A DNA stretch of 64,000 bases from Actinomycetaceae bacterium TAE3-ERU4 (lineage in GTDB: Bacteria; Actinomycetota; Actinomycetes; Actinomycetales; Actinomycetaceae): contig JAHUUJ010000001.1 of assembly GCA_019218365.1 (NCBI GenBank), positions 186,001 through 250,000 of the forward strand. Direction: 5' to 3'. Positions 58,124 through 62,239 of this stretch are shown here, one piece after another. Made by a program: the position numbers and the translations under genes. Within the stretch, counting starts at the first letter, position 1; each line of letters opens with the position of its first letter. The notes beneath the pieces are model-generated. The model was not told where the DNA came from. It was given only the letters and a program-made list of their open reading frames with translations, and ran no database searches.

Positions 58124-58694
58124 GTATATAAACCGAGTAAAGAGCATTCTCTATAGCAATGTTTCAATAGTCATTCAGTTTCGGGAGCGGGAAGTTCACC
58201 AGAGTGAAGCTGAAATAAAAAAGATGATGCTCTCGGCCCGCAGTTCAAAGAAGCTAAATCGCGGGGTGGAACACCATCTCTGCTTCCTACTCTAATGCAT
58301 TTATTCTTTTTTGCACGGCGGCTAAATAGTGCAGCAGAACGATTAGTAGTACATGAATCTATCACAGGAAGCCTTGCAAGAGGTGAAGCGATGAACTTAG
58401 TCGAGGTAACCTACATGACAATCCCCGAATGTCCTCGCACCGAGTTCGTTAAGAAAAGCACAGAAAAAGGCAACACAAGCACAGCACTTACTTTCGTGCC
58501 AGTGGCATTCCCGTGAAATACCACTATACAGAGCTAAATACGGCCATATAGGACTAAAAGATGTTTTCAATAAACACGACTTCTCCCTGCAAAAACAAGT
58601 AAAACACAAGGTTACCGCTTGGTGACATGCCCACAATATGCCCACACAGAGCTACGAGCCACTATCTAGTTTTCACCAATAGTTTCTCTTTTAG
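58124..58694. other. Non-coding segment at the left flank of the AT-rich island
   Basis: About 570 nt without a supported gene. Short frames exist on both strands but have no RBS or recognisable product. The right part carries two ATGCCCACA direct repeats. It may be the remnant of an integration site or of a lost integrase region. Confidence 0.5.
58627..58646. repeat. Two 9-bp direct repeats resembling integrase arm sites
   Basis: ATGCCCACA occurs at 58627-58635 and 58638-58646, an 11-bp period. Short TGGGCAT-type repeats of this kind are common beside tyrosine integrase genes of actinobacterial elements. No integrase gene is visible in this window. Confidence 0.4.
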
Positions 58695-58729
58695 TTGCTG
58701 TTTTAGTTACGCCTTGATAGTGTTAACAC
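58695..58729 (+). promoter_or_regulatory. Promoter with overlapping palindromic operator and leaderless start for the three-gene cassette
   Basis: -35 TTGCTG (58695-58700), 17-bp spacer, -10 TAGTGT (58718-58723). The expected transcription start falls on the A of the ATG at 58730, and there is no Shine-Dalgarno, so the first mRNA is probably leaderless. The perfect palindrome GTGTTAACAC (58720-58729) overlaps the -10 and start site, an ideal repressor site, perhaps for the HTH protein encoded second. Confidence 0.55.
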
Positions 58730-59482
58730 ATGAAAGAAAAGCAGGTGTATTCTAACGCACCTATTGTGTTTGCCGCAGTCGAGGTGCATCATTCCCCTTG
58801 CAGAAAGTTCAGCTCAAGGGATGTCTCTATTATTGATGCTATGTTGCAAGGTGAAGCCATTTGGCAACATGGTACAGAGGAAAAAGAAAACGAAGCACAC
58901 CAGTGGATAAGTGCTGACAACCAGACTGCTTTGATATTCTCTCGAGATTATTTTGCTGTTCAGACAACAAATTACAAAGGACATGAAAAACTTTTCAATT
59001 TAGCTCGCCTAGCTTTTCTTGCTCAAGATAGAGTAGAAGCGCCCGAATCAATTAAAAAAATTGAGTTAAGATATATTGACGAGGTTCGTGCGCCTTTTCC
59101 CCAGGACGAAATCACTATAGATGACTGGAAACCCTGGATATCTTCATATCTACTGGGGCCAAGTTTTAATGGAGAGATTAAAACTCTTGATACTAAATTA
59201 GGCGCCTCACTATTCACTTTTAGGGACTTCTTTATAATTCTGAAGTATGGTCCTCTACAGGGACATATAAAGTTAAATGTCCCCCTGGAAAGATTAGCGA
59301 CACCAGATACGCCTTTCTTCCTTATTGATATGAACAGTCTTTGTGAAGCGCCTGCAAAAGTGCCTGAATGGGATTTACAGTCTGTGTGTAATGCAATTGA
59401 AGAATTGCACTTACCACTTCGAGACATGTTTGAATCTTTGATTACTAATAAACTCCGCGAAGAGGTGCTGAATAGAAAATGA
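58730..59482 (+). CDS. TIGR04255-like protein, first gene of a three-gene cassette
   Basis: A 250-residue soluble protein of unknown function. The opening (YSNAPIVFAAVEVHHSP), the central IKKIELRYIDEV (about residues 103-114), and the overall length fit the sporadically distributed TIGR04255 family, whose function is not known. No enzyme motif, signal peptide or membrane helix is seen. It starts at an apparently leaderless ATG just after a palindrome and overlaps the next gene by 4 nt (ATGA), so it is the head of a tight operon. It is AT-rich compared with genes before 58 kb. Confidence 0.75.
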   Translation: MKEKQVYSNAPIVFAAVEVHHSPCRKFSSRDVSIIDAMLQGEAIWQHGTEEKENEAHQWISADNQTALIFSRDYFAVQTTNYKGHEKLFNLARLAFLAQDRVEAPESIKKIELRYIDEVRAPFPQDEITIDDWKPWISSYLLGPSFNGEIKTLDTKLGASLFTFRDFFIILKYGPLQGHIKLNVPLERLATPDTPFFLIDMNSLCEAPAKVPEWDLQSVCNAIEELHLPLRDMFESLITNKLREEVLNRK

Positions 59483-60105
59483 TACGCACAAATAATTCAA
59501 GAGGAATTGAATCCAAACCAGTACAAGATCATCGAGTGCCTCTTACATGGAATGAGATAACAAGAGATGCTGCCATTATTGAATACGAAGCAGACGACAT
59601 TAAAAATAGAGCAGCTAATACTCGTAAAGAAGCCACGAACCAAGTTTTGCTTAATAAAGCTGCAGAATACGATAAATTAGGCAAAATTAAACTACTGGAA
59701 AAGTTGGCTGATTTGGGATTTTCATGGCGTGACATAGCGAAAATGCTAAATGTTAGTGTCGTTTCTGTAAGGAAATGGAGAAGAGATCAGAGTATCGCGC
59801 CCATAAATCGCAAACGCATATCCCTCCTTTTAGCTTTATGCGACTATTTAAAGGAAGAGGACATGATTAATGAAGTCGCTTCTTGGTTTGAGATTCCGAT
59901 TTATTCAGGTGTTCCTATAACTCCAATTGATCTTTTTGCAAAAAGAAAAGAAAATCTGCTAATAGAATTAGCTAAAGGTAAGCTTGAAAGCGATAGGGTC
60001 CTAGATAATTTTGACCCCAGTTGGAGAGATAAATATCGTTCTGATTTTGAGGTTTTCATAGCTTCTGACGGTAACCTCTCCATACGTCTCAAGGAGACAG
60101 AATAG
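59479..60105 (+). CDS. HTH DNA-binding protein, second gene of the three-gene cassette
   Basis: A 208-residue protein. A predicted helical N-terminus (about 20-70, rich in charged residues) is followed by a helix-turn-helix (about 73-103, KLADLGFSWRDIAKMLNVSV then VRKWRR) and a C-terminal region with IPIYSGVPITPIDLF (about 143-157) and a helix (ENLLIELAKGKLESDRVL). The HTH makes it a likely repressor of the palindromic promoter upstream. It overlaps both neighbours (4 nt and 1 nt), so the three proteins are probably made in fixed ratio. No known family is assigned with confidence. Confidence 0.75.
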   Translation: MIRTNNSRGIESKPVQDHRVPLTWNEITRDAAIIEYEADDIKNRAANTRKEATNQVLLNKAAEYDKLGKIKLLEKLADLGFSWRDIAKMLNVSVVSVRKWRRDQSIAPINRKRISLLLALCDYLKEEDMINEVASWFEIPIYSGVPITPIDLFAKRKENLLIELAKGKLESDRVLDNFDPSWRDKYRSDFEVFIASDGNLSIRLKETE

Positions 60106-60806
60106 TGGGGAATAATCTTAAGACTATCTCAAATGATAAATGGGATATTTTATATGACGCTCGTGGAGACGACGTTCAAGAGACGCGTCTTTTTCTGACT
60201 GGCGACGTGTTTACAGATATAGAGTTACCCGGATCCACAGGAACGACTAAAAAGCGAACTGTCATGCTAGTACAGCATCCCTGTTCCATGCGCAAAGGTA
60301 TTGAGTTAAACTGGCGATTATTAGCTGTTGAAGTAACTAAAAGAAAACCACCAACAGAAGAAGAATGGGGAGGGTATTTTAATTTAATGTTCCTCCCTGA
60401 TTTATTTCCCGAATCTACGTCGAGGAAAATACATCAAGCCGCAAATTTTGATAATTTTTATGTGCTCTCACCTGACTTACTTAAGAATCGAATAGCTTGT
60501 CTTTCGCGAGAAGGAATTGAGATCCTTATGCAACGCTGGGTTAACTACAGTTCCCGTGTGATTGTACCGATAGGAGATTTTGGTAAGCAATTGGCGCCGG
60601 TTATTGAGGAAACCGACTTATTTGATGAATGGTGCGAAGCTAGAGATATTAATAATCTTGAACAGGGTAAGTCAGCACACAAAGACTATCATAATTGGCT
60701 CCGCTCACCCTTGTATGGAGAAAAAACTCCTCAAGAAATGCTCAAAGATGAATCCACCAGATCCACAGTTAGAAAAGAGATGAGAAAATATTTAAAATCG
60801 CAATAG
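60105..60806 (+). CDS. Unknown protein, third gene of the three-gene cassette
   Basis: A 233-residue soluble protein starting with GTG at 60105, overlapping the previous stop by 1 nt. An early beta-rich part (about 1-75) contains RTVMLVQHPCSMRKG (about 61-75), where His-Pro-Cys lies after a hydrophobic strand. The second half is helical with many aromatic and charged residues (EEWGGYFNLMFLPDLFPE; RVIVPIGDFGKQLAPV). No family or catalytic site is recognised. Its 3' end overlaps the truncated DUF4411 remnant on the other strand by about 15 nt, which marks an insertion junction. Function unknown; probably acts with the two upstream genes. Confidence 0.7.
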   Translation: MGNNLKTISNDKWDILYDARGDDVQETRLFLTGDVFTDIELPGSTGTTKKRTVMLVQHPCSMRKGIELNWRLLAVEVTKRKPPTEEEWGGYFNLMFLPDLFPESTSRKIHQAANFDNFYVLSPDLLKNRIACLSREGIEILMQRWVNYSSRVIVPIGDFGKQLAPVIEETDLFDEWCEARDINNLEQGKSAHKDYHNWLRSPLYGEKTPQEMLKDESTRSTVRKEMRKYLKSQ

Positions 60807-61069: not shown

Positions 61070-62239
61070 TATGCTACTGCCCCTCTTTGGAGCCTTTTCA
61101 CAAGTCCTTCAAAGGCCTTATGTGTTTTTGTCCCAAGCAGGCTATGTGCATCCCGGAAGGTTGTAGCCCCCTCATAAGTACTCGTAATCACCGCATCAGT
61201 AAATCTAGAACCAAGACGAGAAAGCTAGTTATTTGTAGTACCCTCCTTTAGAGCCTTCCTCTTTATCCTTTATTTTCTGAGCTTCAAGAAGTCTATTAAT
61301 TTATTTATACTCCTCTTGATAAGTATGCCAATTCAGGAAACCCGCATCATAAAGACTCTTGAGTATTACAAGCGTACTCACACAATATTTTTTAGAAAGT
61401 CTTTCATACTCTTCTGTACACAAAATATATCTGTAGTCTTTTTTTAATGCTTCTAGTGGCACAAGAGCTTCTGCAGCTACTTTGTTACACCAGTTTTCCT
61501 CATCATTTCCATCTTCAGTAATAATATTCGCGTCAGAAAGAGCGCTGCGCCCAAGGAATAAATGCGCTAATTCATGAATGATTGTGAAAATTTGTCCGCT
61601 TTTTGTATCAGCAGTATTAACAAAAATAAGTGGTGCTACTGGGTCACAAAGACTAAACCCTCGAAACTCGCTAATTCGAAGGGGGCGCTTAGCGTTAGAA
61701 CCTACCACACTGTTTCTCATCACTAAGACACCAAGGTCTTCTATTTGCTGAATAAGGTAAGTTATCATATTTTCTCTGGTACGACCTTTACGATCATCTA
61801 GTTCGAATCGGAGTAGTTTCCGAATTCTTTTTGCAACTATCTCCGGCTCTGTTCGCATGGAGGCGCTATTTATGAAAGAGAGCTCCTCTAGTCCAAGTTC
61901 TTCAGCATAGTCTTTGTACCAGCTTTGTCGTCGTTGACAGGTGTATATTGTGTCTAATAAATCACCGGAGGGATGCGTTACCTTACGGTTCTTCATTGTT
62001 CGCATGTCTAGAATAGGTATTTGTTCCGTAGGTGGTTCTGGAAGGAATAGCATTCCAAATGGGGCATGCGTTTTCGTCGCGAATTCTTGTAGCTGGTTGA
62101 GGGTAGGTTTTTTCTCTCCTGTAATCCAATCTATATATTTGGAGAATTTGTCGCAGGCGGTTTCGAAATCCCATCCTGCTCGTTCTCTTGCCCATTCTAA
62201 GAGTTCTGGTTCTACATCTACATAGACCGGTTTAGTCAT
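61069..62239 (-). pseudogene. ImmA/IrrE metallo-endopeptidase (HTH-linked) gene, C-terminus disrupted
   Basis: An intact reading frame of 312 residues runs from 62239 to a TAA at 61301. It has an N-terminal HTH-like region (about 1-70), a DMRTMKNRKVTHPSG strand and the zinc-protease motif HELAH (His at 222). Beyond the stop, homologous sequence continues: INRLLEAQKIKDKEEGSKGG in the same frame, then after a frameshift and a second stop near 61230, SRLGSRFTDAVITSTYEGAT and LLGTKTHKAFEGLVKRLQR to a TAG at 61069. So about 75 C-terminal residues are detached. The protease core may still be made; the full protein is not. AGGAGGTGA is a strong RBS. It pairs with the DUF4411 remnant. Confidence 0.75.

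What the first reader, a model, noticed from the sequence alone, without database searches (positions are those of the whole stretch)
58695..60806. Three-gene, self-contained cassette of unknown function (TIGR04255-like + HTH + unknown) with leaderless promoter and operator
Seen: three plus-strand genes overlap by 4 nt (ATGA) and 1 nt; none is a known enzyme; the middle one has an HTH; a TTGCTG-17-TAGTGT promoter places its start on the first ATG; a perfect GTGTTAACAC overlaps -10 and start. The block is AT-rich, flanked on the left by integrase-arm-like repeats and on the right by a gene it appears to have truncated. Established: TIGR04255 proteins are sporadic and uncharacterised. Inference: a mobile, autoregulated module such as a defence, toxin-antitoxin or phage-response system. 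This is the best candidate for an undescribed system in the window.
Basis: partly seen in the sequence, partly recalled or inferred. Interest (0 to 1): 0.75.

Follow-up and report, generated by a model that had tools for sequence, protein, structure and literature searches.

The report
Three-gene toxin-antitoxin-like mobile module
Three neighbouring genes form a small travelling unit, found mostly in actinobacteria, that looks like a poison-and-antidote system with an extra third protein of unknown role, probably used against viruses or to keep itself in the cell.

Summary
The three genes form one conserved unit. Of 80 relatives found through gene A, B follows in 72 of 78 testable loci and C in 66 of 69. 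B resembles the antitoxin MbcA (profile E 2.3e-5). C is confidently predicted as a MazF/CcdB-fold protein (VIA Z 11.4) with its own invariant residues. A is TIGR04255, fold uncertain. The unit is on a Rhodococcus plasmid, on viral contigs, and beside type I restriction genes in 9 of 80 loci. TIGR04255 also heads other three-gene operons, ending in a distant C relative, a HEPN-like protein or an unknown family. Best reading: an undescribed tripartite toxin-antitoxin module: B antitoxin and repressor, C toxin, A a stabilising or sensing part. Toxicity and defence are inferred, not shown.

The parts
58681..58716 (+). 12-nt tandem repeats (AGTTTC / AGTTGC / AGTTAC starting at 58681, 58693, 58705): proposed operator array for B; a looser copy AGTTTT starts at 58668
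   Evidence: lag-12 RGTW pairs 98 observed against 1.8 in shuffles over 68 upstream regions; 55 of 71 B-bearing loci have a pair, controls 0 of 71, 0 of 66 and 1 of 71; only RGTTNC triple in the genome
58718..58723 (+). candidate -10 (TAGTGT, TANNNT type), start expected at or near the ATG
   Evidence: sequence; TANNNT at this place in 34 of 67 upstream regions; not reported by the sigma-70 consensus scan
   Evidence: relatives
58730..59482 (+). gene A, TIGR04255 family protein, 250 aa: third component of unknown activity
   Evidence: NCBIfam TIGR04255 1.1e-25; AF2 pLDDT 91.6; weak fold matches, Z at most 8.3
59479..60105 (+). gene B, HTH protein related to the Xre/MbcA/ParS antitoxins, 208 aa: proposed antitoxin and autorepressor
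   Evidence: profile of 40 B proteins matches MbcA 6fkg_C over HTH and C-terminal domain, E 2.3e-5; HTH_23
60105..60806 (+). gene C, 233 aa: MazF/CcdB-fold protein (about residues 26-153) with a helical C-terminal extension: proposed toxin
   Evidence: AF2 pLDDT 94.7; Foldseek MazF E 9.7e-5; VIA Z 11.4, rmsd 2.7, 109 residues
60807..61072 (-). truncated and frame-broken DUF4411 gene at the right edge (flank, not part of the module)
   Evidence: PF14367 2e-10 and 1.8e-4 on two pieces searched apart; stop inside the end of C

Best explanation
A mobile tripartite toxin-antitoxin module. C is the toxin: a MazF/CcdB-fold domain with its own conserved residues and a helical tail, most likely acting on RNA or on another nucleic-acid machine. 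B is the antitoxin: its C-terminal MbcA-like domain should hold C inactive, and its HTH should bind the 12-nt repeat array in front of the -10, repressing the operon. A (TIGR04255) is the third part: it should stabilise the B-C complex or sense an invader, so that loss or occupation of A frees C and stops growth. Shown here by computation: gene linkage and order, B's relationship, C's predicted fold, the conserved repeats, mobile settings. Inferred: toxicity, neutralisation, binding of B to the repeats, A's role, defence.
For: A-B-C conserved (72 of 78, then 66 of 69). B matches MbcA; one related B' protein (L169) hits the Xre/ParS antitoxin model at 9.9e-11, below its cut-off, and B aligns with B' at 98.8%, or 97.4%, E 9.3e-12, once a row shared by both profiles is left out. 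C folds like MazF and CcdB. Distant C relatives without A sit behind other small genes, two of them weakly Phd/YefM-like (E 0.033 and 0.084, below cut-off). Repeats in front of A genes that have a B next to them. Plasmid, viral-contig and restriction-gene settings. Other TIGR04255 operons end in HEPN (4.2e-6 for one) or a weak HicA match (0.045).
Against: No toxicity, binding or phage data. C has no Pfam match to MazF/PemK. The position that I align by eye to the MazF active-site arginine is not conserved (R in 22 of 61), so ribonuclease activity is doubtful. A 233-aa toxin is not the usual MazEF plan, and B's partner is not a RES toxin. A also occurs alone: 5 loci and 3; C occurs without A in several genomes. 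16 of 71 B-bearing loci lack a repeat pair.
Confidence: 0.68

Rival explanations
1. A toxin-antitoxin-chaperone (TAC) system in the strict sense: A is a dedicated chaperone that folds and protects antitoxin B, and phage proteins titrate A away, as CmdC does in CmdTAC.
For: Three-gene plan with toxin-like, antitoxin-like and a third protein; A is shared by operons with different partner genes. CmdTAC as precedent (PMC11618068, abstract).
Against: A's best fold matches are phosphagen/McsB kinases, TBP and AdoMetDC, all weak (Z at most 8.3). A has invariant charged residues (R114, E118, R120, D200 in 69 of 69), which look more like an active or ligand site.
Confidence: 0.2
2. A regulatory module, not a toxin: B and C form a transcription complex on the repeats and C's MazF-like domain is only a binding module; A delivers a signal.
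For: The MazF active-site arginine, aligned by eye, is not conserved in C; conserved operator; the repeat triple occurs once in the genome, at this operon.
Against: With no second strict site in the genome it would regulate mainly itself. Setting on a plasmid, in viral contigs and beside restriction genes. Other TIGR04255 operons carry HEPN or HicA-like genes.
Confidence: 0.15
3. C is a gyrase-poison-like (CcdB-type) or other non-nuclease toxin rather than an mRNA interferase (a variant of the best explanation).
For: CcdB chains score nearly as well as MazF (Z 10.2 against 11.4); H58 (60 of 61) and the invariant C60, W88, R129, Q143, R144, R151 and E169 are not the MazF set as I recall it.
Against: MazF ranks first in both fold comparisons; no gyrase-binding feature can be tested here.
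Confidence: 0.3
4. An ordinary housekeeping or metabolic operon.
For: TIGR04255 alone sits beside genes that look like proA or a MoxR-type ATPase in mycobacterial-type loci (L104, L105, L110; L176).
Against: Sporadic: C in 6 of 396 and 10 of 394 genomes, and in 1 of 151 of the own family; mobile settings; toxin-like fold.
Confidence: 0.03

Closest known systems
MbcTA / Xre-RES toxin-antitoxin systems
   Same: B is related to the antitoxin MbcA over HTH and C-terminal domain; antitoxin-like gene before toxin-like gene; Xre-RES represses its own promoter (PMC12204516, passages).
   Different: C is MazF/CcdB-fold, with no RES match; there is a third gene A; the operator is a run of 12-nt direct repeats, whereas the P. 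putida Xre-RES complex binds an imperfect inverted repeat.
MazEF / PemIK / CcdAB
   Same: C shares the toxin fold over about 110 residues (Z 11.4 MazF, 10.2 CcdB).
   Different: Twice the length, helical tail, no Pfam PemK match, different invariant residues (MazF set recalled), MbcA-type instead of MazE/CcdA-type partner.
Toxin-antitoxin-chaperone systems (CmdTAC; SecB-dependent TAC)
   Same: Tripartite: toxin, antitoxin and a third protein; defence setting (PMC11618068, abstract; PMC5105189, search listing).
   Different: A is TIGR04255, for which no SecB relationship was seen; the third gene comes first; toxin and antitoxin families differ.
Panacea (PanA) combinatorial toxin-antitoxin network
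   Same: One shared component combined with several toxin families (PMC8832971, search listing; PMC10440598, listing and passages).
   Different: PanA is the antitoxin itself; TIGR04255 is an additional gene in front of a two-gene couple.

Membership tests
TIGR04255 family (gene A) | score above the curated cut-off (30 bits) | tested here: met
   90.9 bits, residues 7-245 on profile 2-250 of 252
Xre/MbcA/ParS antitoxins (gene B) | HTH plus C-terminal toxin-binding domain, related in sequence | tested here: met
   profile of 40 B proteins hits MbcA 6fkg_C, E 2.3e-5, across both parts; the window protein alone does not hit PF09722 at E up to 1
Xre-RES / MbcTA systems | partner is a RES-domain toxin | tested here: not met
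   C has no RES match and folds like MazF/CcdB
MazF/PemK/CcdB toxins (gene C) | MazF/CcdB fold | tested here: met
   pLDDT 94.7; VIA Z 11.4, rmsd 2.7, 109 residues; the 50 entries shown are described as MazF, CcdB, Kid, endoribonuclease or toxin-type proteins
MazF/PemK/CcdB toxins (gene C) | sequence match to the PemK/MazF family model | tested here: not met
   no such family at E up to 1
MazF/PemK/CcdB toxins (gene C) | catalytic Arg and Thr of MazF (recalled) | tested here: inconclusive
MazF/PemK/CcdB toxins (gene C) | toxic ribonuclease or gyrase activity | not testable with these tools
   needs expression and in-vitro assays
Toxin-antitoxin-chaperone systems | three linked genes: toxin, antitoxin, third protein | tested here: met
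   linkage; the roles of B and C are inferred
Toxin-antitoxin-chaperone systems | third protein is a SecB-like chaperone | tested here: inconclusive
   weak, mixed fold matches only
Catalogued anti-phage defence systems (PADLOC-DB 2.0.0) | match of A, B or C to a model | tested here: not met
   none for A and C; for B only WGR_XIII at E 0.0046, over the HTH stretch

The most novel reading that the evidence does not exclude
TIGR04255 is a plug-in third component (sensor or licensing factor) of toxin-antitoxin modules. The same protein family sits first in at least four kinds of three-gene operon: MbcA-like + MazF/CcdB-fold; Xre/ParS + C' (distantly related to the first kind); unknown + HEPN; and a pair of unknown families. 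Profile comparison finds no relation between the second and third genes of the last two kinds and those of the others. One triggering principle would then be shared by several different toxins.
Probability: 0.42. Interest if true: 0.85.

Novelty: new variant of a known kind. Interest (0 to 1): 0.68.

Why it matters
TIGR04255 has no described function that I could find: full-text searches for the name found no paper in a 5.39-million-paper open-licence library; subscription literature is untested. The work gives this family a context, a predicted toxin-fold partner, an antitoxin-related partner and a conserved operator, all directly testable. If A is a shared trigger for several toxins, it would be a new way in which bacteria couple invader sensing to growth arrest.

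Tried and rejected
Rejected: the palindrome GTGTTAACAC as operator. PDB hits of A by sequence (9hnh, 2i0o) are not significant. Single-sequence pattern scans gave nothing for C in genome contigs, A in viral contigs and C in viral contigs; the first C alignment had no stretch conserved enough. No match in the phage collection for an A relative, in plasmids for a C' protein or for the window's DNA. Comparison of C with the two short proteins of L160 and L168 is not significant (3.9%), so their place in the C' group rests on their motif, by eye. Direct repeats of 12 nt or more between 57.9-58.8 kb and 65.5-67.7 kb, as att sites: none. The VIA table for A shows no SecB among its 50 rows; that excludes nothing. 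I first took for a Bacillota sample because locus L106 is labelled Sporosarcina. That sample holds a contig of 13,546 bases that is also 'same phylum' as the window and mycobacterial-type loci, so I read it as a second sample of the window's phylum and make no Bacillota claim.

Results against my reading. Of 13 non-own genomes found by C, four show C without A (G597, G664, G702, G647; in G647 the contig ends just upstream, so A cannot be excluded), as does a second copy in G452; in G458 C lies on the opposite strand; in G231 the upstream part is cut off. 16 of 71 B-bearing loci lack a repeat pair; three loci were left out as A fragments; among the A genes without B, L112 has one pair 300-430 nt upstream. 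Pfam gave nothing for the L031 partner gene, which by eye resembles AbrB/MazE. C looks shortened or split in L014, L030/L050, L037, L074, L087, L088 and L094, which may be assembly error.

Full report
What is there. Three plus-strand genes, A 58730-59482, B 59479-60105 and C 60105-60806, overlap by 4 and 1 nt. A belongs to TIGR04255 (1.1e-25). B has an HTH. C has no family match better than E 0.048. The block is AT-rich. At its right edge a minus-strand DUF4411 gene is left as two frame-broken pieces that match the first half of the profile, the frame ending in a stop a few codons inside the end of C.

It is a unit. Searching by C, 6 of 396 phylum genomes and 10 of 394 class genomes have it, the own genome included in both, and only the own genome among 151 of its family. 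Of the 13 other genomes, eight have A, B and C together: seven in the window's order and strand (C broken in one) and one with C inverted. In one the upstream part is cut off; four show C without A. A family search in 59 relatives found one further A, again followed by B and a shortened C (L014). Searching by A in the GTDB species genomes gave 88 loci, of which 80 were kept; six of these are loci already seen. Among 78 with 700 nt or more after A, 72 have B next; among 69 with 700 nt or more after B, 66 have C. Two of the other three (L114, L115) have a distant C relative in its place, the third (L083) nothing recognised. By record title nearly all are actinobacterial; L082, L088 and L115 are Chloroflexi, L084 Dormiibacterota, L065 and L109 just 'bacterium', and L106 is labelled Sporosarcina, but its genome appears to fall in the window's phylum.

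What the proteins are. A profile of 40 B proteins finds the antitoxin MbcA (6fkg_C, E 2.3e-5) over HTH and C-terminal domain. One B' protein of another TIGR04255 operon (L169) hits the NCBI Xre/ParS antitoxin model at 9.9e-11, below its cut-off. B and B' profiles align at 98.8%; one row (L115) is in both, and without it in the B profile the figure is 97.4%, E 9.3e-12. The C model (61 sequences, pLDDT 94.7, pTM 0.90) matches MazF first (Foldseek 9.7e-5; VIA Z 11.4, rmsd 2.7, 109 residues) and CcdB at Z 10.2. The matches span residues 26-153; the helical tail was not tested apart. Invariant in 61 of 61 are G33, D34, C60, W88, R129, G137, Q143, R144, R151 and E169, with H58 in 60. These are not the MazF catalytic residues as I recall them, so the chemistry is open. 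C is related to short C homologues (95.9%, 5.9e-9) and less surely to the longer C' group (73.6%, 2.9e-5). The A model is good (pLDDT 91.6), but its fold matches are weak and mixed (TBP, AdoMetDC, McsB and phosphagen kinases, Z at most 8.3). Y82, R114, E118, R120, W133, D200 and F234 are invariant in 69 of 69.

A conserved operator. Upstream of A, RGTW motifs recur every 12 nt: 98 lag-12 pairs against 1.8 in base shuffles, and 50 against 1.5 at lag 24, in 68 upstream regions with the window's. Of the 80 loci, 3 were left out as A fragments. A pair lies within 130 nt upstream in 55 of 71 B-bearing loci; controls are 1 of 71 on the reverse strand, 0 of 71 inside A and 0 of 66 further upstream. 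Of six A loci without B, five have none near A (one of them, L112, has a pair 300-430 nt upstream), and the sixth, L057, whose contig ends just after A, has the repeats. In 14 of the 30 regions of the wider family that I tested there were none (all). In many loci the array ends on a -10-like GGTAGCAT or GGTATCAT. In the window three RGTTNC copies start at 58681, 58693 and 58705; this triple occurs once in the 1.7-Mb genome. That B binds it is inferred. P. putida Xre-RES binds an imperfect inverted repeat instead (PMC12204516, passages).

Mobility and setting. Two Rhodococcus MOBF plasmids carry A and B directly after mobF. On pNAPH a C match follows; on pRaL13e an insertion sequence follows B, and partial C matches lie elsewhere. 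All 3 viral contigs found carry A-B-C. Ten neighbours that I picked by eye from 9 loci were scanned for defence models: nine match, among them type I restriction subunits, Thoeris ThsB, PDC-S06, PbeA/helicase-type and DUF262-type proteins; one (L040) does not. A search of all 80 loci, with queries taken from such loci, finds type I restriction genes in 9 and HsdM in 8. For scale, by my count of the listing, about 120 N6-Mtase matches at E 1e-20 or better lie in 198 genomes of the phylum; at about 3 Mb each (my estimate) roughly 0.1 would be expected in the 0.5 Mb of flanks. Four of the eight (L043, L045, L047, L048) share one arrangement, as do L106 and L107, so they are not independent. In the own genome a tRNA-Ser(tga) lies at 66459-66547 in window coordinates, with a 75-aa fragment beside it that I read as an integrase arm (no Pfam match): probably a degraded element reaching from about 58 kb.

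The wider family. TIGR04255 was found in 14 of 201 genomes of a Chloroflexi locus's phylum (18 places) and 15 of 198 of the second sample (15 places). I fetched 30 of the 33 places and classed them by eye (part's output was cut, and 79 showed those loci again). One is A-B-C (L174, the contig of L010/L063); 11 have a third gene with the C' signature (S/T-x-x-C-D or close; one, L155, is L115 again); 4 have a HEPN-like third gene; 9 a pair of unknown families; 1 a weak HicA-like gene (0.045); 3 have A alone; 1 is unclear. Leave-one-out profiles support the HEPN set (1.3e-20 or better, these 4 plus a Thermus plasmid), its second genes (1.7e-11 or better, Thermus only 0.007), and the unknown pair (second genes 4.1e-14 or better in 9, third genes 4.3e-6 or better in the 8 used) as true families. 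Pfam HEPN is met by the Thermus protein (4.2e-6) and hit below cut-off by L157 (0.003), not by L162, L166 or L170. Apart from C with C', no pair among A, B, C, C', the two HEPN-operon genes and the two unknown genes is related by profile comparison (27 other pairs, best 1.2% probability).

How it most likely works. B and C look like a type II antitoxin and toxin; B, alone or with C, should repress from the repeats; A should stabilise or license the complex, and its loss or engagement by an invader would free C. CmdTAC, in which phage capsid protein removes a chaperone and frees a toxin, is the nearest worked example (PMC11618068, abstract). Every functional step here is inference.

What is known. 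Full-text searches for TIGR04255 found no paper. Searches combining MbcA, MazF, tripartite and defence terms, of which I saw the listings, showed no title or abstract beginning that describes this combination. A term search of the PanA network paper's main text finds neither MbcA nor tripartite; in the HicA context paper 'tripartite' occurs only in a reference.

Verdict. A real, conserved, mobile module of three genes for which I found no description; by anatomy a new variant of the tripartite toxin-antitoxin kind. Its most interesting part is the TIGR04255 protein, which appears in front of several unrelated couples.

Noticed in passing
window 61301-62239 (-): ImmA/IrrE-type metallopeptidase (Peptidase_M78 1.1e-11; phrog_2439 2.4e-44) next to the DUF4411 remnant: possibly a second, partly destroyed toxin-antitoxin-like pair directly right of the module.
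   Followed up: partly
own genome, window coordinates 66106-66333 and 66459-66547 (outside the window, L188): A 75-aa fragment that I read as an integrase arm (no Pfam match) beside tRNA-Ser(tga): probably the remains of an integrative element reaching from about 58 kb; no att repeat of 12 nt or more found.
   Followed up: partly
L117 (Thermus brockianus plasmid pTB1), 5839-7533: TIGR04255 followed by an unknown gene and a HEPN protein, on a plasmid stretch that also carries an argonaute PAZ protein, a DNA methylase, a VapC toxin and cas6.
   Followed up: partly
L033 6116-7275, L035 6270-7423, L031 5044-6090, L032/L034: Short relatives of C without A, behind different small genes (weakly Phd/YefM-like in L033 and L035; AbrB/MazE-looking by eye only in L031, no Pfam match): possible two-gene toxin-antitoxin pairs. 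L035 lies beside genes that I read as Wadjet jetABC (not tested).
   Followed up: partly
L101, L104, L105, L110, L112, L176: TIGR04255 without B and C in mycobacterial-type loci; beside genes that look like proA (L104, L105, L176) or a MoxR-type ATPase (L104, L105, L110, L176): a separate, apparently chromosomal use of the family.
   Followed up: no
L154, L155, L169 and others (third gene): A protein family of about 280-315 aa with a conserved S/T-x-x-C-D(I/L/V) motif, distantly related to C; the members scanned in Pfam and NCBIfam (L154, L164) have no model.
   Followed up: partly
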